Assembly: GCF_016807805.1 (NCBI RefSeq)
Contig: NZ_CP063362.1
Location: 1,612,001-1,676,000 of the forward strand
Direction: 5' to 3'
From: Xanthobacter dioxanivorans
GTDB lineage: Bacteria; Pseudomonadota; Alphaproteobacteria; Rhizobiales; Xanthobacteraceae
Length of the DNA stretch: 64,000 nucleotides
This document shows, in pieces, positions 42,802-50,727 of this stretch (positions are counted from its first letter, which is position 1; the number at the start of each line of letters is the position of its first letter). The translations under genes and the position numbers were made by a program. The notes under the pieces were generated by a model that ran no database searches, had not been told where the DNA came from, and was given only the letters and a program-made list of their open reading frames with translations.

Positions 42802-43839
42802 CTAGCGTCTCCGCCCGTGGCGTTGCGGTGGTGGGGCGGGAAGAAGCCCCATCAGGTCACCGCCCGGATGCGCCGGGGCCTCCGTGCGCTCGGCCGCGCG
42901 AAGCTTCGCGGACCTTGCACGCGGATTTCCTGCCACTTCGTCGGGGCCGGCTTCCACCGCACCCTTCGCCACGAGGCGGAAGGAGGGCTCCGGCCCTTCC
43001 GCTTGCGGCATGTGGCGCGAGGCGGATGGTGCCTTTGCCCGGTGTGACAGAAAAGTCTTAACGATCCTGTCCTCGAGGGAATGGAAGGTGACCACCACCA
43101 GCCGTCCCCCCGGGGCCAGCGCCCGCTCGGCGGCCGCCAGCGCCCGTACCAGCTCGTCCAGCTCCTCGTTCACCGCGATGCGCAGGGCCTGAAACGTGCG
43201 GGTGGCGGGATGGATCTCGCCGGGCTTGGCCCAGACGACGCGCGACACGATCTCGGCCAATTGCGCGGTGCGGGTGATGGGCGCCTCGGCCCGCGCCTTC
43301 ACGATGGCCTTGGCGATGGCGCGCGATTGCCGCTCTTCCCCCAGCGACCAGATGACATGGGCGAGGCTGACCTCGTCGAGCTCGGCCACCAGGTCGGCGG
43401 CGGAGGGGCCGGCATCGCCCATGCGCATGTCGAGGGGGCCGTCGCGGCGGAAGGAGAAGCCGCGCTCCGCCTCGTCGAGCTGCATGGAGGAGACGCCGAT
43501 GTCGAGGACCACGCCGTCGAGGGGGCCGAAGTTCGCCTCTTCGGCCAGCGCGTCGAGCCGGGAGAAGCGGTCCTGGGCGAGGACGAGGCGGCCGGCGGAC
43601 GCGGCGACGAGGCCCTGTCCCGCCGCGATGGCGGTGGGGTCGCGGTCGATGGCGAGCACGCGGCAGTCGGCGGCGGCGAGGATCGCCCGCGTGTAGCCTC
43701 CCGCGCCGAAGGTGCCGTCCACGTAGCGGCCGGCGTCCTTCGGCGCGAGATGCGCGAGGACTTCGGCGAGCATCACGGGCAGATGACGGGCCGGTCCGCC
43801 AGCGGCGTCGGCAGGGCCCACGCCGTGGCCCGTCGTCAT
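42802..43839 (-). CDS. rsmH: 16S rRNA (cytosine1402-N4)-methyltransferase RsmH (MraW)
   Basis: 345 residues. Motifs are [13 protein letters not shown], the SAM loop [42 protein letters not shown] and [13 protein letters not shown]. The start ATG 43839 overlaps the mraZ stop by four bases. The C-terminus ends in a Pro/Arg-rich tail ([12 protein letters not shown]). Confidence 0.96.
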
Positions 43840-44309
43840 GCCCCGGTGCTCCCCGGGTCCTGCGCTTGGGAGCCGATGGCCCGGCGCAGCTCGCGCACCC
43901 TTCGGGTGGCCTCCGCGAGATGCGCCTTTAGCCGCTCCGGTTCCCAGATCCGGAACTTGTGCCCGAGCCCCACGAAGGCCACCTCGCCGGCGACCCCCGC
44001 GTGGGACTTGAGGGTTTCGGTCAGCACCACCCGGCCTTCCGGGTCGATGCGCAGGGTCTCGCTGGTGCCGTAGAGGGCGGCGGCCAGCTCCTCGCGCGCC
44101 TCCGAATAAGGCGGATAGCGCCCGATCAGGGCGTCGATCTCGCCGATGAGCCGGTTTCCGCCCGCATCCAGCGCGGGCTCGGCAAGGCTCGGATGGCAAT
44201 AGAGGCCGTCCGCGCCGTCCTTGGCCAGCACCGTGCGGTAGGGCGCGGGGATGGAGACCCGGCCCTTGGCGTCGAGGCGCATCGTGTAGGTGGACACGAA
44301 GCGGTCCAT
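43836..44309 (-). CDS. mraZ: MraZ, transcriptional regulator of the division/cell wall cluster
   Basis: A 157-residue protein with two SpoVT-AbrB-like domains; the first has [19 protein letters not shown], the second the [12 protein letters not shown] repeat of the same fold. It binds TGGG repeats upstream of its own gene and represses the cluster in E. coli. Four TGGG repeats are present 80-115 bases upstream here (separate entry). It is first in the minus-strand order mraZ-rsmH-ftsL-ftsI-murE-murF-mraY. Confidence 0.95.
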
Positions 44310-44690: not shown

Positions 44691-46883
44691 ATGTGGTCCC
44701 GCCTCTACTGGCTCGCCGTGGGCGGCCCGCTCGCCGCCGGCCTCGTCCTTATGGGCGCCGATCCCGGCCCCCTGGCCGATGCGCGTAACGGCCTGTTCGA
44801 TCTCTACCAGCGCGCCGCGCCGCGCCCCTATGATCCGGATCTTCCGGTGCGCATCGTTGACGTGGACGAGGCCTCGCTGGCCCGCATCGGCCAGTGGCCA
44901 TGGCCGCGCGCCACCATCGCGGCGCTGCTCGACCGCCTCGCCGGCCTTGGAGCGGGCGCCATCGCCTTCGACATGGTCTTCTCCGAGCCAGACCGCCTCG
45001 ACCCCGTCGCGGTGGCCGCCCTCCTGCCCGAGGAGGTCCGCGCGCCGGTGGTGGCCGCCCTGGTCGGCCGGGAGGGGAACGACGCGCGCTTCGCCGGGGT
45101 GCTGGCCGCCAGCCCCTCGGTCCTCGGCGCGGTGCTGACCGACGCCCAAACAGGGACCAAGGCCGGCGGGGCCTATCCGGCCAAATGGGGCCTCGCCAGC
45201 GCCGGCGACGATCCCCTCGCCTTCGTGCCGCGCTTTTCCGGAGCCGTCGCGCCGCTGCCGGTGCTGGCCGAGGCGGCCAAGGGCATCGGTGCGCTCAACT
45301 GGCTGCCGGACCGCGACCAGGTGGTGCGTCGGGTGCCGCTGCTGCTCGGCCTCGAAGGCAAGCTCGTGCCGGGCCTCGGGGCCGAGGCGCTGCGGGTGGC
45401 GCAGGGGGCGTCCACCTATGTGGTGCGGGCCTCCAATGCCAGCGGCGACGCCGGCTTCGGCACCAGATCGGGCATCACCGCTGTGAAGATCGGCGCCCTC
45501 GACGTGCCCACCGACGCCATGGGGGAGGTGCGGGTGCGCTTTTCTCCCACCGATCCGCGGCGCTTCCTGTCCGCCGCCGCCGTGCTCGACGGCACGGTGG
45601 CGCGCGATGAGGTGGAAGGCCGCATCATCCTGGTGGGCACCAGCGCCGCCGGGCTCATGGACACGCGGGCGACGCCCCTCGATGCGGCGGTGGCGGGGGT
45701 GGAGATCCAGGCCCAGCTCATCGAGCACGTGATCACCGGCGCCGGTCTCGCCCGGCCGGACTGGGCGCGCGGGGCGGAGATGGTGCTCACCGCCGTGCTC
45801 GGCGTCCTCCTCGCTCTGGTGCTGCCGCGGGTTTCGGCGGTGACGGCGGGGCTCGCCGGCGTGCTGGTGCTGGCGGCGCTGGGGGCCGGCGCCTGGTTCG
45901 CCTTCACCCGGCTCGACCTGCTGCTCGACCCCATGGGGCCCGGCGCGGCGGTGCTGGGAGTCTATCTCCTCGGCGTGCTGGCGCTTTATCGCGACGAGCA
46001 GCAGCAGAAGAAGTGGGTGCGCTCGGTGTTCGGCCGCTTCGTATCGCCCAAGGTGGTGGAGCGCCTCGCGGAAAATCCCGAGCGCCTCGTCCTCGGCGGC
46101 GAGACGCGGGAGATCACCATCCTGTTCTGCGACCTGCGCGACTTCACCTCCCTGTCGGAGACCATGGACGCCCAGGCCCTCACCCGCTTCATGAACGCCT
46201 ACCTCACCCCCATGACCGAGGTGGTGCTGAGCCACGGGGGGACCATCGACAAATATATCGGCGACGCCATCATGGCCTTCTGGAATGCGCCGATGGACGA
46301 TCCCCACCACGCCCGCAACGCCGCCGCCTGCGCGCTGGCCATGTCCCGGCGGCTCGACGCCCTGAACGAGGACTGGCGCCGCGCGGCGGAGGCGGCCGGC
46401 CGGCCCTATGCCCCGGTGCGCTGCGGCATCGGTCTCGCCACCGGGCCGTGCTGCGTGGGCAATCTGGGTTCCGATCAGCGGCTCGAATACTCCTGCCTCG
46501 GCGACGACGTGAACCTCGCCTCACGCATCGAGGGGGCGACGAAATCCATGCGCGTGGACATCCTCGTCTCCGAGGCGACCCGCGACGCGGCCGCCGGCCT
46601 CGCCTTCATCGAGGCGGACATGCTGATGCTGAAGGGCAAGTCGCGGGCGAGCCAGCTCCACCTTCTCGCCGGCGACGCCGCCTTCGCCATCTCCGACGAC
46701 TTCGCGGCGCTGGCGCGCGACCATGCCGCGCTCATGTCGGCCTACGGCGCCGGTGACTTCGCGGCCGCCGGCGCGCTGGCGGCGGCGCTGGAGCACAACT
46801 GCCCGCCGCGCCTCTCCCGCTTCTATGCCCTTTATGCCGAGCGCAGCCGCGAGGGCCGCGAGGTGCCCTCGGCAAGTGCCTGA
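44691..46883 (+). CDS. CHASE2-domain class III adenylate cyclase
   Basis: A 730-residue membrane sensor cyclase. One helix near the N-terminus (LYWLAVGGPLAAGLVLMG) is followed by an extracytoplasmic CHASE2 domain (about residues 30-345; VRIVDVDEASLARIGQWPWP, GRIILVGTSAAGLMDTRATP). Three helices (about 360-430) and a cytoplasmic cyclase domain follow. Both metal aspartates (Asp481 in FCDLRDFTSL, Asp525 in YIGDAIMAFW), the purine-selecting Lys521 and Asp606, and the transition-state Asn608/Arg612 (DVNLASRIEG) are present, so it should be an active adenylate cyclase. It lies 63 bases before the ABC gene and ~2.8 kb before a cyclic-nucleotide-binding gene on the same strand, suggesting a shared cAMP circuit. 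Confidence 0.92.
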   Translation: MWSRLYWLAVGGPLAAGLVLMGADPGPLADARNGLFDLYQRAAPRPYDPDLPVRIVDVDEASLARIGQWPWPRATIAALLDRLAGLGAGAIAFDMVFSEPDRLDPVAVAALLPEEVRAPVVAALVGREGNDARFAGVLAASPSVLGAVLTDAQTGTKAGGAYPAKWGLASAGDDPLAFVPRFSGAVAPLPVLAEAAKGIGALNWLPDRDQVVRRVPLLLGLEGKLVPGLGAEALRVAQGASTYVVRASNASGDAGFGTRSGITAVKIGALDVPTDAMGEVRVRFSPTDPRRFLSAAAVLDGTVARDEVEGRIILVGTSAAGLMDTRATPLDAAVAGVEIQAQLIEHVITGAGLARPDWARGAEMVLTAVLGVLLALVLPRVSAVTAGLAGVLVLAALGAGAWFAFTRLDLLLDPMGPGAAVLGVYLLGVLALYRDEQQQKKWVRSVFGRFVSPKVVERLAENPERLVLGGETREITILFCDLRDFTSLSETMDAQALTRFMNAYLTPMTEVVLSHGGTIDKYIGDAIMAFWNAPMDDPHHARNAAACALAMSRRLDALNEDWRRAAEAAGRPYAPVRCGIGLATGPCCVGNLGSDQRLEYSCLGDDVNLASRIEGATKSMRVDILVSEATRDAAAGLAFIEADMLMLKGKSRASQLHLLAGDAAFAISDDFAALARDHAALMSAYGAGDFAAAGALAAALEHNCPPRLSRFYALYAERSREGREVPSASA

Positions 46884-46946
46884 GATCCATGCGTTTGACG
46901 CGGTTTTGCGCTTGCCAACCGGGAGCGTCCCCAGCAAGAAGGTTGC

Positions 46947-49622
46947 ATGAGCGGCGCGGACCCCACGTCACCTTCCGACGGAACGGACCCTTCGGCGCAC
47001 GGCGGGACGGGCCCGGCCCGCGCCATGCCGCGCGCCATGCTCACCTATCTCTGGCGGGCGGCACCGGCGAGCCACATCAAGCTGTTCGCGCTGGTGCTGC
47101 TGCTGCTGCCCTTCAACTACGCCTCGCTCGAGCTGCCGCGCCTCATCGTGAACGGCGTGACCGACGCCATCGGCGGCACGGTCCCCCGCCTCCTCGCCTT
47201 CGACCTTGCCTTGCCGGATTTTCTCGGCGGGGCGAGGTTCTACAGCTTTCCCGGCTTCGAGGTGACTGCCTTCGGGCTTCTGGCGGGCCTGGCCCTGGTG
47301 CTGTTCGCCCTCCAGCTCATCCAGCAGCACATCTCCCGGCTGATCGAGATGGCGAAGGCGCGGCTCGGCGAGCGCATCTTGGTGGGCCTGCGCCGCCAGC
47401 TGTTCGACATCATCCAGCGGCTGCGCCCCGAGGCGCCCATGAAGAGCAAGGCCCTGGAAGTGGGCAACATGCTGCGGTTCGAGGTGGGGCCCATCGCCCC
47501 CTTCGCCGGCATGGCCTTCGCCCAGCCGCTGAAATCGGCCGGCCTCATCGGCTCGGCGACGCTGCTGATCTTCACCCAGAACGCGGCGCTGGGCGCCTGC
47601 GCCATCGGCATCCTGGCGCTGAACCACGTGCTGCTCGGCATCCAGCGCCGCGACAACGAGAAGAAGCTGCAGATCTACCAGCGCGAGGCCGTGGCCCTCG
47701 GCAAACGCGTCATGTCCGGCATCGACCGGCTGCCCCTCGTCCACGGCTTCGCCACCAGCCCCTTCGAGCGCGCCGAGGTGGACGGCCGCCTCGCCATCGT
47801 CTCCGAGGCGAGCCTCGACATGAAGCGGCAGAACGCCACCGACCGCATCCTCAACCTGCTGATGTCGGACGTGCCCACCCTGGTCTTCTATTCGGTGGGC
47901 GGATGGCTCGCGTTGTCGGGCGCCATCAATATCGGCCAGCTGGTGGCGGTGGTGGCCGCCTACGGCCAGATTCCCGAGCCGCTCAAGGAGCTGATTGACT
48001 GGGACGAGAAGCGCGTGGTGGCGCAGGTGCGCTACGACTTCGCCCGTTATTATCTGGAAACCCGCGAGGTCTGGCCCGAGGGGGTGCAGGACGTCGCCGA
48101 GGGGCCGGAGCCCGCCTTCGACGGTTCCATCAAGGTGGCCGACCTCGGCATCGTCGATCCGGCGGGCGGGGCGCTGGTGGATGGGGTGAGCTTCGACGTC
48201 GCGGCCGGACGCGCCGTGGCGCTGAAGGGTCCAGATGCCGGCGGCAAGCACGCGGTGGCCAAGGTATGCGGGCGCGCCATCTCGCTCTACAGCGGCACGG
48301 TGCGCGTCGGCGGGCACGATCTTGCCAGCATGTCCGAGGGGCTCTACGGCCGGCACGTGGCCTATGCGGGCGGCGACCCCATCGTGATCAACGGCACGCT
48401 GCGGGAGAACCTCGCCTGCGCCCTGCTCCGCCGGCCCCGTCGGACGACGGGGGAGGCCGCCGACCTTGCGGCCATGGGCGCCCGCGATGCGGCCGACCTC
48501 GACCAGCGCGCGCTCGCCGCCTTGTCGCTCGCCGGCCTCGGCGACCTCGTGGTGCGGCTGGGGCTGGAGCGGCGGCTCGATCCCGAACGGGAGAGCGCGC
48601 TCACCTCGCGCCTCGTCTCGCAGCGCGCCGCCGTCACCGACGCGGTGGCACGCCGGCAGACGCAGACCGGGCGCGTGCTGATGGAGCCGTTCCGCTTCGC
48701 CGCCTTCAACCGGTGGATGACGCTCGCCGAGAACATCCTGTTCGCCACCCCGCTGAACGACGGGCGCGGGGCCTCCTCCCTGCTCGCCGATCCGGGACTT
48801 GGCCCGCAGCTGACCAAGATCGGCCTCGCCGGGGACCTGCCGCGCTTCGGCCGGGCCGCGCTCGGCATCCTCGTGGACCTGGCCGGCGGGCCGGAGGAGC
48901 TGGCGGGCATCGACACCAAGGGCCTGCTGCGGGCCGAGGAGATGCGCGCCGCCGGGCGCATCGCCGCCCGCGCCGTGGAGGAGATGACCACCGGGGAGCG
49001 GGCGCTGCTCGTGCGCATCGCCGGGCGCTATTGCGAGCCGCGCCACCGCTTCGGCCTGCTGGACGAGGCGTGGCAGGAGCGGACGCTGGCGGCGCGGGCG
49101 CATCTGGCGCACGTCACCGAGGTGTCGGGCATCCGCCTCGCCCGCTACCAGCCGGATGCCTATTGCCAGGCCCTCACCGTGCGCGACAACCTGCTGTTCG
49201 GCCGCATCGCCGCCGACCGGGCGGGGGCGGCCGCCGCGGTGGACGAGATCGTGCGCGAATGCCTGGCGCAGGAAGGCCTCATCGGGCAGGTGGAGCGGCT
49301 CTGCCTCGACGTGACGGTGGGCGAGGGCGGGCTGCCGCTCTCCGCCGCCGAGCGCGGCAAGCTGACGCTGGCGCGCTGCCTGCTCGCCGATCCCGACATC
49401 CTGGTGATCGACGATGCGCTGGTGCCGCTCGCCCCGGCGGAACAGAGCACCCTCATCGACGCGGTGCTCGCCCGGCGCACTGGACGCACCACGCTCGTCG
49501 TCCTAGATGCGGGAGAGCCGCTGCATCTGTTCCGCGAGGTCATCGTGATGACCCACGGCCAGATCGAGCGCATCGAGGAGCCCGGTGCGGGGGCAGTGTC
49601 GCCACAGGCGGCCCGGGCCTGA
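46947..49622 (+). CDS. Large ABC-transporter-like protein with degenerate nucleotide-binding region
   Basis: An 891-residue protein. The first ~350 residues resemble an ABC exporter membrane domain (ASHIKLFALVLLLLPFNYAS, AYGQIPEPLKELIDWDEKR). The rest is NBD-like but altered: Walker A is GPDAGGKHA (428-436, His instead of Ser/Thr), the signature is LSAAERGK (798-805) instead of LSGGQ, Walker B ends DD (DILVIDDAL, 817-825) without the usual Glu, and the switch His is absent (LVVLDAGEPL). About 300 residues separate the first ENL segment (TLRENLACAL, ~482) from the signature, and similar segments recur (TLAENILFATP ~592; TVRDNLLFGRI ~745), suggesting internal duplication. ATP hydrolysis looks doubtful. 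It sits between a cAMP-making and a cNMP-binding gene. Confidence 0.85.
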   Translation: MSGADPTSPSDGTDPSAHGGTGPARAMPRAMLTYLWRAAPASHIKLFALVLLLLPFNYASLELPRLIVNGVTDAIGGTVPRLLAFDLALPDFLGGARFYSFPGFEVTAFGLLAGLALVLFALQLIQQHISRLIEMAKARLGERILVGLRRQLFDIIQRLRPEAPMKSKALEVGNMLRFEVGPIAPFAGMAFAQPLKSAGLIGSATLLIFTQNAALGACAIGILALNHVLLGIQRRDNEKKLQIYQREAVALGKRVMSGIDRLPLVHGFATSPFERAEVDGRLAIVSEASLDMKRQNATDRILNLLMSDVPTLVFYSVGGWLALSGAINIGQLVAVVAAYGQIPEPLKELIDWDEKRVVAQVRYDFARYYLETREVWPEGVQDVAEGPEPAFDGSIKVADLGIVDPAGGALVDGVSFDVAAGRAVALKGPDAGGKHAVAKVCGRAISLYSGTVRVGGHDLASMSEGLYGRHVAYAGGDPIVINGTLRENLACALLRRPRRTTGEAADLAAMGARDAADLDQRALAALSLAGLGDLVVRLGLERRLDPERESALTSRLVSQRAAVTDAVARRQTQTGRVLMEPFRFAAFNRWMTLAENILFATPLNDGRGASSLLADPGLGPQLTKIGLAGDLPRFGRAALGILVDLAGGPEELAGIDTKGLLRAEEMRAAGRIAARAVEEMTTGERALLVRIAGRYCEPRHRFGLLDEAWQERTLAARAHLAHVTEVSGIRLARYQPDAYCQALTVRDNLLFGRIAADRAGAAAAVDEIVRECLAQEGLIGQVERLCLDVTVGEGGLPLSAAERGKLTLARCLLADPDILVIDDALVPLAPAEQSTLIDAVLARRTGRTTLVVLDAGEPLHLFREVIVMTHGQIERIEEPGAGAVSPQAARA

Positions 49623-49682
49623 GGAGAAGACCATGTGTCCGTCGCGCGGTGCGCGTGGACCATCTGCGGGAGGAATGCCCCC

Positions 49683-50126
49683 ATGAGCATCGAGGACGAG
49701 GCGCGGACACTGGCCCGCATCCCCATGTTCCGCGATCTCGAGCCGAGCCAGCTGCGGCTGCTCGCCTTTTCCGCCAGCCGGCTCGACGTGGCGGCGGGCG
49801 ATGTGCTGTTCCACCAGGGTGACGTGCCGGATGCCGCCTATGTGGTGCTCGACGGGACGGCGGTGATCGAGGTGGCGGCGGGCGGCGCCGCGCACGAGGT
49901 GGCGCGGCTCGGTCGCGACACGGTGGTGGGCGAGATGGGCGTGCTCACCGGCGAGCCGCGCACCGCCACGGTGCGCGCCGGCGACCCCATGAGCGTCCTG
50001 CGCATCGAGACCGATCTCTTCCTGTCGCTGCTCGACAAGACCCCCTCCCTCGCCCGCTCGGTGCTGCGCGACCTCGCCATGAGGCTCCAGCAGACGACGC
50101 AGGCCCTGGTGCGGGCGCGCGGCTGA
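49683..50126 (+). CDS. Stand-alone cyclic-nucleotide-binding domain protein
   Basis: A 147-residue protein made almost entirely of one CRP-type cNMP-binding domain ([40 protein letters not shown]). The phosphate-binding cassette [17 protein letters not shown] has the key Glu and Arg. There is no DNA-binding helix-turn-helix, so it is not a CRP-like activator; it probably binds a protein partner. It starts at ATG 49683, 60 bases after the ABC-like gene. The likely ligand is cAMP from the cyclase two genes upstream, and the ABC-like protein is the obvious candidate partner (inference). Confidence 0.9.
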
Positions 50127-50289
50127 TGCCCAGCGAGGCACGGACCCCGGAGGGCACGGGTTCCGGGAGCAGGCATATGGTCGGCATCGCCGGGCCGTGA
50201 GCCGGCAAATCCGATTGTTTCGCCCGTCCCTTGCGTCCCGTAACGGCAAGCGTCACCATGCCGCGCCATTCTTCCTGGGGGGTATCGGG

Positions 50290-50727
50290 ATGCGATTCAT
50301 AAAGCTCATCGTCGGGCTCGTGCTGGCCTTGTCTCTGGCCGCCTGTTTCGAGGGGGCGCAGGGCCCCGCTGGCCCGCAGGGCGCGGCTGGCGCTGCCGGT
50401 CCGCAGGGGCCCGCCGGCGTGGCCGGCCCGGTCGGTGCGGCTGGTCCCGCAGGTCCGGCCGGCCCCCAGGGCGCGGTCGGACCCGCCGGTCCGCAAGGGA
50501 TCCAGGGCGTGCCCGCTGCCGCCAACATCGCCGTGCGCGCCTCGGATTGCCCGGCGGCCGGGTGCCTCGCCGGCTGCGAGAGCGGCGAAAGCGTGATCGG
50601 CGGCTATTGCGTCAACCATGACCGGGGCATGCAGCACATCGCCGTGTTCTCGGCCCGGGACGGCAAGACCGAGGTGGAATGCCTCAATCCGGTCAAGCAG
50701 GTGGTGGCGGTCTGCCTCAAGCCCTGA
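50290..50727 (+). CDS. Collagen-like repeat lipoprotein
   Basis: A 145-residue predicted lipoprotein. The signal sequence [19 protein letters not shown] has a lipobox (LAAC). It is followed by 18 uninterrupted Gly-X-Y triplets (GAQ GPA GPQ ... GIQ GVP), a collagen-like triple-helix sequence. A C-terminal domain of about 70 residues has six cysteines ([26 protein letters not shown]) that could form three disulfides. ATG 50290 is preferred over in-frame 50197 because it begins the signal peptide. The function is unknown; a trimeric surface stalk is plausible. It is 163 bases after the cNMP-binding gene, so co-transcription is uncertain. Confidence 0.85.

What the first reader, a model, noticed from the sequence alone, without database searches (positions are those of the whole stretch)
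44691..50126. Candidate cAMP-linked membrane module: CHASE2 adenylate cyclase, degenerate ABC-like protein and stand-alone cNMP-binding protein
Seen: three same-strand genes with gaps of 63 and 60 bases. The first has every catalytic residue of an adenylate cyclase plus an extracytoplasmic CHASE2 sensor. The third is a bare cAMP-binding domain with an intact phosphate-binding cassette but no DNA-binding part. The one between them looks like an ABC exporter whose ATP-binding motifs are altered. Known: CHASE2 cyclases are membrane sensors, and cNMP domains gate partner proteins. Inferred: the cyclase makes a local cAMP signal that the small protein reads and passes to the ABC-like membrane protein, either to control transport or to use the protein as a sensor or scaffold. 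I know of no described system with these three parts.
Basis: partly seen in the sequence, partly recalled or inferred. Interest (0 to 1): 0.72.

Follow-up and report, generated by a model that had tools for sequence, protein, structure and literature searches.

The report
cAMP-linked, ATPase-dead ABC membrane pair
Next to a gene for a cAMP-making enzyme sit two genes that travel together across many bacteria: one resembles a drug-pump protein whose fuel-burning site has decayed, the other is a small protein with an intact cAMP pocket, which suggests a membrane protein switched by cAMP instead of powered by ATP.

Summary
The three genes are real, with gaps of exactly 63 and 60 bases. The conserved unit, however, is genes 2 and 3; the cyclase is a recurrent but optional neighbour. 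The ABC-like protein belongs to a large family that our paper searches did not find described. It has a type IV exporter fold and a ~230-residue insert; a Q-loop segment is present three times. None of 91 representatives keeps all six ATPase residues. The cNMP protein keeps its phosphate-binding Glu in 125 and Arg in 126 of 127 sequences. It lies directly downstream of, or fused to, the ABC-like protein in 124 of 130 loci and in 30 of 30 fetched from another draw, 24 of them new. Class III cyclases with different sensor domains recur beside the pair. In six Xanthobacter genomes the neighbour is the only class III cyclase; three congeners keep the cyclase but lack the pair. Best reading: a cyclic-nucleotide-switched, ATPase-dead ABC-fold membrane protein. 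Cargo, ligand and ATP independence are untested.

The parts
44691..46883 (+). CHASE2 class III nucleotide cyclase, 730 aa
   Evidence: ORF; Pfam CHASE2 and Guanylate_cyc; one of two PF00211 places in the 6.65-Mb genome
44742..45806 (+). CHASE2 extracytoplasmic sensor domain
   Evidence: PF05226, residues 18-372, E 7e-54
46104..46652 (+). Cyclase catalytic domain
   Evidence: PF00211, residues 472-654; aligned with solved cyclases
46947..49622 (+). ABC-exporter-like protein, 891 aa, predicted ATPase-dead
   Evidence: PF00664 and PF00005; AlphaFold mean pLDDT 82.1; exporter fold; family
47019..48086 (+). Transmembrane domain (residues ~25-380), on average the most conserved part of the family
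   Evidence: PF00664; model; 2.6-3.0 bits per column against 1.7-2.7 in the NBD segments
48228..48254 (+). Degenerate Walker A (GPDAGGKHA)
48342..48428 (+). Q-loop segment, copy 1 (Gln replaced by Gly)
48678..48752 (+). Q-loop-like segment, copy 2, inside the insert
   Evidence: HHalign against copy 3: 98.5% probability; against copy 1: 86.8%
49128..49208 (+). Q-loop-like segment, copy 3
   Evidence: HHalign against copy 1: 95.7% probability
49335..49421 (+). Degenerate signature (LSAAE) and Walker B (ILVIDD)
49683..50126 (+). Stand-alone cNMP-binding protein, 147 aa, no DNA-binding domain found
   Evidence: PF00027 alone; solved relatives
49929..49979 (+). Phosphate-binding cassette [17 protein letters not shown]
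   Evidence: Gly 127/127, Glu 125/127, Arg 126/127 in the aligned set

Best explanation
Genes 2 and 3 encode a two-part membrane effector. Gene 2 is an ABC exporter fold, probably a homodimer, whose nucleotide-binding domain has lost ATPase chemistry and gained two extra Q-loop-like segments. Gene 3 is its cyclic-nucleotide-binding subunit. A class III cyclase (here the CHASE2 sensor cyclase) makes cAMP or cGMP; the cNMP subunit binds it and changes the state of the pseudo-NBD and so of the transmembrane domain. This opens or closes a transport path, or exposes a binding surface, without ATP hydrolysis. In many relatives the partner pathway may be an envelope glycan made by a neighbouring glycosyltransferase cluster; in Xanthobacter that cluster was not found at the locus. 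Shown by computation: gene content, fold, loss of the motifs, conserved pairing and fusion, retained cNMP pocket residues, recurrent cyclase adjacency. Inferred: cAMP or cGMP as ligand, physical docking, loss of ATP turnover, switching and cargo.
Against: No biochemistry. 75 of 91 full-flank non-Xanthobacter loci have no cyclase within 3 kb, although cAMP diffuses and all 40 genomes searched hold at least one class III cyclase. Four relatives lack the cNMP gene with flank available (L049, L058, L062, L065). Residual motifs persist in part: Walker A Lys in 27 of 91, Walker B Asp in 43 of 91, so ATP binding without hydrolysis is possible. A cNMP domain fused to the exporter HetC binds ppGpp and not cAMP (PMC10986499, passages). 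The cyclase exists without the pair in three congeners. No background rate was measured for the glycosyltransferase and oligopeptide-ABC neighbours, and gtA has no match in the window genome. No complex was modelled.
Confidence: 0.52

Rival explanations
1. Non-transporting receptor or scaffold: the exporter fold is frozen and only anchors the cNMP sensor at the membrane, where cyclic nucleotide controls a partner such as the neighbouring glycosyltransferases or oligopeptide-type ABC transporter.
For: Loss of ATPase motifs; a well-folded ~230-residue insert that could bind partners (ten-residue pLDDT means 84 or more except one block of 70); two or more glycosyltransferase homologues in 65 of 100 loci and an oligopeptide ABC ATPase homologue in 69 of 100 (no background rate measured).
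Against: The transmembrane domain is on average the most conserved part, unlike a mere anchor; the glycosyltransferase neighbours were not found at the Xanthobacter loci and gtA has no match in the window genome.
Confidence: 0.2
2. Ordinary ATP-driven exporter with non-canonical motifs; the cNMP subunit is an allosteric regulator of an ATPase, as the cNMP domain may be in HetC.
For: Exporter fold; Walker A Lys kept in 27 of 91 and Walker B Asp in 43 of 91; some members without cNMP keep Lys, Glu and His (L049, L058, L062).
Against: None of 91 keeps all six residues; catalytic Glu in 14, His in 6, Gln in 11; seven loci of other ABC proteins of the same genome have standard motifs.
Confidence: 0.13
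3. Same pair, but the ligand is not a cyclic mononucleotide (for example ppGpp as in HetC), and the cyclases are neighbours for other reasons.
For: The HetC cNMP domain binds ppGpp and not cAMP (PMC10986499, passages); 75 of 91 full-flank non-Xanthobacter loci have no cyclase within 3 kb.
Against: Phosphate-cassette Glu and Arg kept in 125 and 126 of 127; repeated cyclase adjacency; sole genomic class III cyclase adjacent in six Xanthobacter genomes.
Confidence: 0.1
4. One reading: an obligate three-gene module in which the CHASE2 cyclase exists to serve the pair.
For: Order cyclase, ABC-like, cNMP in the window and in six further Xanthobacter genomes with flank on both sides (L163, L164, L165, L168, L169, L170); gaps of 63 and 60 bases.
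Against: Three congeners carry the CHASE2 cyclase beside the same downstream neighbours without the pair; 75 of 91 non-Xanthobacter loci have the ABC-like gene without a cyclase within 3 kb; adjacent cyclases elsewhere carry different sensors.
Confidence: 0.04
5. Pycsar-like anti-phage system (cyclase plus cNMP-binding effector).
For: The cyclase and cNMP protein match PADLOC PycC and effector models at the domain level.
Against: The ABC-like protein matches no PADLOC model; the pair often stands beside glycosyltransferase genes and mostly without a near cyclase.
Confidence: 0.01

Closest known systems
HetC of Nostoc PCC 7120 (peptidase-containing ABC exporter with N-terminal cNMP domain; PMC10986499, passages seen)
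   Same: A cNMP-type domain coupled to an ABC exporter fold.
   Different: HetC has a C39 peptidase, needs its ATPase residue for function, has the cNMP domain at the N-terminus of the same chain, and binds ppGpp and not cAMP.
NHLM bacteriocin export system and its cNMP-domain protein (TIGR03796, TIGR03896)
   Same: Best NCBIfam hits of both proteins; an ABC exporter with an accessory cNMP protein (system description recalled).
   Different: Scores far below the curated cut-offs (98 against 853 and 62 against 161 bits).
Heterodimeric ABC exporters with one degenerate nucleotide site (TmrAB, BmrCD, TM287/288, MsRv1273c/72c)
   Same: Among the closest folds; loss of motifs at one site (PMC12038006, start of abstract in the listing, and general knowledge).
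   Different: They keep one working site; in a homodimer of this protein both sites would be degenerate. Insert and cNMP subunit are not known in them (recalled).
Cyclic-nucleotide-gated channels such as Mll3241/MloK1 (PDB entries)
   Same: A cNMP domain gates a membrane protein; sequence-related cNMP domain (E about 1e-9).
   Different: The membrane part is a K+ channel, not an ABC exporter fold.
SbmA/BacA peptide transporters and CFTR (recalled, not tested)
   Same: Exporter-fold transmembrane domains working without ATP-driven pumping (SbmA/BacA) or as a channel under cAMP control (CFTR, through PKA).
   Different: SbmA/BacA have no NBD; CFTR binds ATP and has no cNMP subunit.

Membership tests
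Type IV ABC exporters | Transmembrane domain of the ABC_membrane type | tested here: met
   PF00664 30.2 bits, cut-off 28; AlphaFold model matches exporters
Type IV ABC exporters | ABC NBD fold | tested here: met
Type IV ABC exporters | Working ATP site: Walker A GK[ST], Q-loop Gln, Walker B DE, H-loop His | tested here: not met
   Window protein lacks S/T, Gln, Glu and His; none of 91 representatives has all six residues
NHLM export system (TIGR03796/TIGR03896) | Score above curated cut-off | tested here: not met
   98.4 against 853.3 and 62.3 against 161.05 bits
HetC-type PCAT exporters | C39 peptidase domain | tested here: not met
   No peptidase in Pfam scans of the window protein or of four fused relatives
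HetC-type PCAT exporters | cNMP domain functionally coupled to the exporter | not testable with these tools
   Fusion and adjacency support coupling but no assay was possible
Crp/Fnr transcription regulators | DNA-binding helix-turn-helix after the cNMP domain | tested here: not met
   Only PF00027 found; 147 aa
Pycsar | Cyclase plus known Pycsar effector | tested here: not met
   The ABC-like protein matches no PADLOC model; the cNMP protein matches effector models only over their cNMP part
CHASE2 class III cyclases | CHASE2 plus class III catalytic domain | tested here: met
   PF05226 and PF00211; alignment with solved cyclases

The most novel reading that the evidence does not exclude
A very large, undescribed family of ABC exporter folds in Alpha- and Betaproteobacteria has replaced its ATP engine with a cyclic-nucleotide input: the nucleotide site decayed, the Q-loop coupling segment was tripled, and a dedicated cNMP-binding subunit (sometimes fused) now drives the conformational switch of the transmembrane domain. 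It would be a non-transcriptional cAMP/cGMP effector, in effect a cyclic-nucleotide-gated channel, flippase or receptor built on an ABC exporter, fed by whichever cyclase the genome places beside it.
Probability: 0.35. Interest if true: 0.9.

Novelty: new variant of a known kind. Interest (0 to 1): 0.74.

Why it matters
Alphaproteobacteria can hold many class III cyclases (28 in Sinorhizobium meliloti, PMC13001267 introduction; up to 35 in one of the 40 genomes), yet that introduction says that cAMP acts primarily through CRP-family transcription factors. A widespread membrane effector with an intact cNMP pocket would give many of these cyclases a direct, non-transcriptional target. A S. meliloti strain carries the pair on pSymB, where the cNMP subunit is annotated as a Crp/Fnr transcription regulator, so the idea can be tested in a genetic model. 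It would also be an unusual case of an ABC exporter fold that lost ATPase chemistry across a whole family but stayed conserved, which bears on how exporters can be driven or gated.

Tried and rejected
Rejected: the obligate three-gene module. Rejected: degeneration by pseudogene decay; the frame is open, the transmembrane domain is on average the most conserved part and loss of the motifs is family-wide. Rejected: anti-phage Pycsar. Considered and not settled: a second half-transporter as heterodimer partner; none was recognised beside the pair, but only selected neighbours were annotated.

Led nowhere: paper searches for a description of the pair. Searches found no paper. The listings (6 papers; 1; 15 of 22 shown; 4; 12 of 303 shown) showed no such pair by title and abstract start; HetC came. 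A search with S. meliloti locus tags recalled from memory hit a different gene: the tag read is a dehydrogenase. One search opened the 1021 pSymB record, which carries no gene table; one search opened a record without annotation. In one search the mraZ query found nothing in the other Xanthobacter stretches and the mraW query was cut out of frame, so conservation of the upstream flank was not tested. The gtA search in the window genome was empty, but the tool had no positive control.

Caveats on counts: the 80 named loci are the best matches to an alignment headed by the window protein, not an even sample. The 130 loci include the window and some loci from the same or near-identical genomes (for example L083/L167, L084/L166, L085/L168, L047/L134), and its 127 cNMP sequences include P0040, which comes from the same fused gene as L153. 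Six of the 30 loci are genomes already in that set (L187, L196, L198, L200, L202 and the window as L209), and 30 of the 45 matching places listed were fetched. L090 and L116 were flagged as fused by the script; I treat these as overlapping-frame artefacts and do not count them as fusions. One search left out sequences under 800 aa; one search left out L083-L085, L166 and L167, and its tree is a quick one in which the window's branch is long and several long branches meet, so the counts of changes are approximate. The chance estimate assumes cyclase genes spread evenly over each genome; no such estimate was made for the 80 named loci, and no background was measured for the glycosyltransferase and oligopeptide-ABC neighbours.
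Full report
What is there. The window comes from a Xanthobacter-type genome: the nearest named proteins are from Xanthobacter. Three ORFs lie on the + strand at 44691-46883, 46947-49622 and 49683-50126, with gaps of 63 and 60 bases. Gene 1 is a CHASE2 class III cyclase. Gene 2 has an ABC exporter transmembrane region and an ABC domain, both modestly above Pfam cut-offs. Gene 3 is a bare cNMP-binding domain. In NCBIfam none of the 25 best models shown (of 115 matched) reaches its cut-off for gene 2 and none of 6 for gene 3; the best are the NHLM exporter and its cNMP partner, far below cut-off.

Gene 2 defines a large family. It was found at E<=1e-60 in 27 of 289 genomes of the class, the window's own among them, and at E<=1e-100 in 35 of 397 genomes drawn over the phylum, again with the window's own and all 35 from the same class. 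A search with a relative (L058) gave 4132 protein clusters at E<=1e-60 among the 7995 candidates scored; only the best 120 were seen. Within the genus 9 of 14 genomes have it and in the other genera of the family none of 35.

The ATP site is lost family-wide. Of 91 representatives under 70% identity (from 182 sequences of more than 800 aa), the Walker A Lys is kept in 27, the S/T in 19, the Q-loop Gln in 11, the Walker B Asp in 43, the catalytic Glu in 14, the His in 6; none keeps all six and three keep four. The 120 further sequences keep at most four. Seven loci of other ABC proteins of the same genome (L004 and L008 are the same ORF) show standard Walker A, signature and Walker B. The transmembrane domain is on average the best-conserved part, 2.6-3.0 bits per column against 1.7-2.7 in NBD segments, with Q-loop copy 2 and the signature/Walker B stretch near the top of the latter. 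So this is not decay of the whole gene.

Gene 3 belongs to gene 2. In 130 loci examined, 124 have the cNMP gene directly downstream or fused; of the six without, two end at a contig edge (L084, L166) and four lack it (L049, L058, L062, L065). In the phylum draw 30 of 30 fetched loci have it, 24 adjacent and 6 fused; 24 of the 30 were not in the earlier set, and 30 of 45 matching places were fetched. Many of the gene pairs overlap by four bases. Fusions with all three Pfam domains were confirmed in P0037 (Labrys), P0033, L181 (Ruegeria plasmid) and L176, and fusion needs at least two changes on the tree. The cNMP pocket is intact: Gly 127, Glu 125 and Arg 126 of 127.

The cyclase is a recurrent, optional neighbour. 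Outside Xanthobacter, 16 of 91 loci with 3 kb on both sides have a class III cyclase within 3 kb (18 of 93 with two cut loci), 13 of the 18 on the same strand downstream of the cNMP gene. In the unnamed class and order genomes 4 of 35 loci have one against 0.58 expected from genome-wide counts (Poisson P 0.003). On a quick tree of 125 rows adjacency, scored in 100 of them, changes at least 11 times. The neighbouring cyclases carry different inputs: CHASE2 (Xanthobacter, L110), 2Fe-2S (L036, L100, L119, L131, and the second of two tandem cyclases in L097), response regulator (L153), GAF (L038), or none recognised (L042, L089, L129, L178). In L131 the Pfam scan found only the 2Fe-2S domain at the threshold used; its cyclase domain rests on the tblastn hit. 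The 2Fe-2S type recalls CyaC of S. meliloti, described as a redox-responsive cyclase with a [2Fe-2S] cluster (PMC10463352, passages); the two were not compared directly. A common messenger with interchangeable sensors is what one expects if the pair reads the cyclic nucleotide.

Xanthobacter gives a natural experiment. Six congeners with the pair (G289, G290, G291, G293, G298, G300) have exactly one PF00211 match each, the one upstream of the pair; the window genome has two, and G295 and G297 two each. Of five congeners without the ABC-like gene, G292 and G301 have no PF00211 match, and G294, G296 and G299 have the CHASE2 cyclase beside the same downstream neighbours but neither ABC-like nor cNMP gene in the stretches read. 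So the pair comes or goes as a unit, beside a cyclase that also exists alone.

What it may act on. In 65 of 100 loci with at least 6 kb upstream there are two or more homologues of a glycosyltransferase cluster, and in 69 an oligopeptide-type ABC ATPase homologue; no background rate was measured. Reference members of the cluster carry GT4 and GT28-type domains and a histidine phosphatase; gtA has no Pfam match. Rhizobiaceae plasmids show a similar setting in annotated records. In Xanthobacter the cluster was not found at the locus and gtA has no match in the window genome, so the pair can work without it or with something else.

Mechanism. Most likely (0.52) the cNMP subunit docks on the pseudo-NBD and cyclic-nucleotide binding replaces ATP-driven dimerisation as the switch for the transmembrane domain. 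Gene content, fold, motif loss, pairing, fusion and pocket conservation are computed results; ligand identity, docking, lack of ATP turnover, switching and cargo are inference. The strongest caution is HetC, whose cNMP domain binds ppGpp and not cAMP and whose ATPase residue is needed (PMC10986499, passages).

Novelty. Exporters with cNMP domains are known (HetC; the NHLM system, recalled and by the names), so this is scored as a new variant of a known kind. The features that I found in no described system in our searches are the family-wide loss of the ATP site, the tripled Q-loop segment and the strictly paired cNMP subunit.

Noticed in passing
50197-50727 (+): Small collagen-repeat protein with a lipoprotein-like N-terminus directly downstream of the pair; found in some congeners (L168-L170) and not in others (L163-L165).
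   Followed up: partly
L049, L058, L062: A clade of relatives without the cNMP gene keeps more ATPase residues (Lys, Glu and His present) than most members; possibly loss of the cNMP subunit goes with retention of ATP chemistry. L065, also without cNMP, does not fit this.
   Followed up: partly
L179:12809-13273 (S. meliloti R14 pSymB): The 154-aa cNMP subunit is annotated as a Crp/Fnr family transcriptional regulator; by length it has no room for a DNA-binding part, but this copy was not scanned.
   Followed up: no
L047:1084-8714, L064:2-7828 and many loci: Conserved cluster of glycosyltransferases, a histidine phosphatase, a protein without Pfam match (c8) and an oligopeptide-type ABC transporter of unknown product, next to the pair.
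   Followed up: partly
L212-L216 and second copies in the same genomes: Six of seven genomes of one family (f24) carry two ABC-like places with open frames of about 1010-1080 aa; the five first copies fetched are fused to cNMP, the second copies were not fetched.
   Followed up: no
L065: Methylobacterium radiotolerans 48-kb plasmid carries a strongly degenerate ABC-like gene with no cNMP partner beside it, near a VapC-type toxin gene and a recombinase gene.
   Followed up: no
42802-44309 (-): The mra/cell-division genes (names recalled) lie upstream of the cyclase here, but an MraZ query found nothing in the stretches fetched from other Xanthobacter genomes.
   Followed up: no
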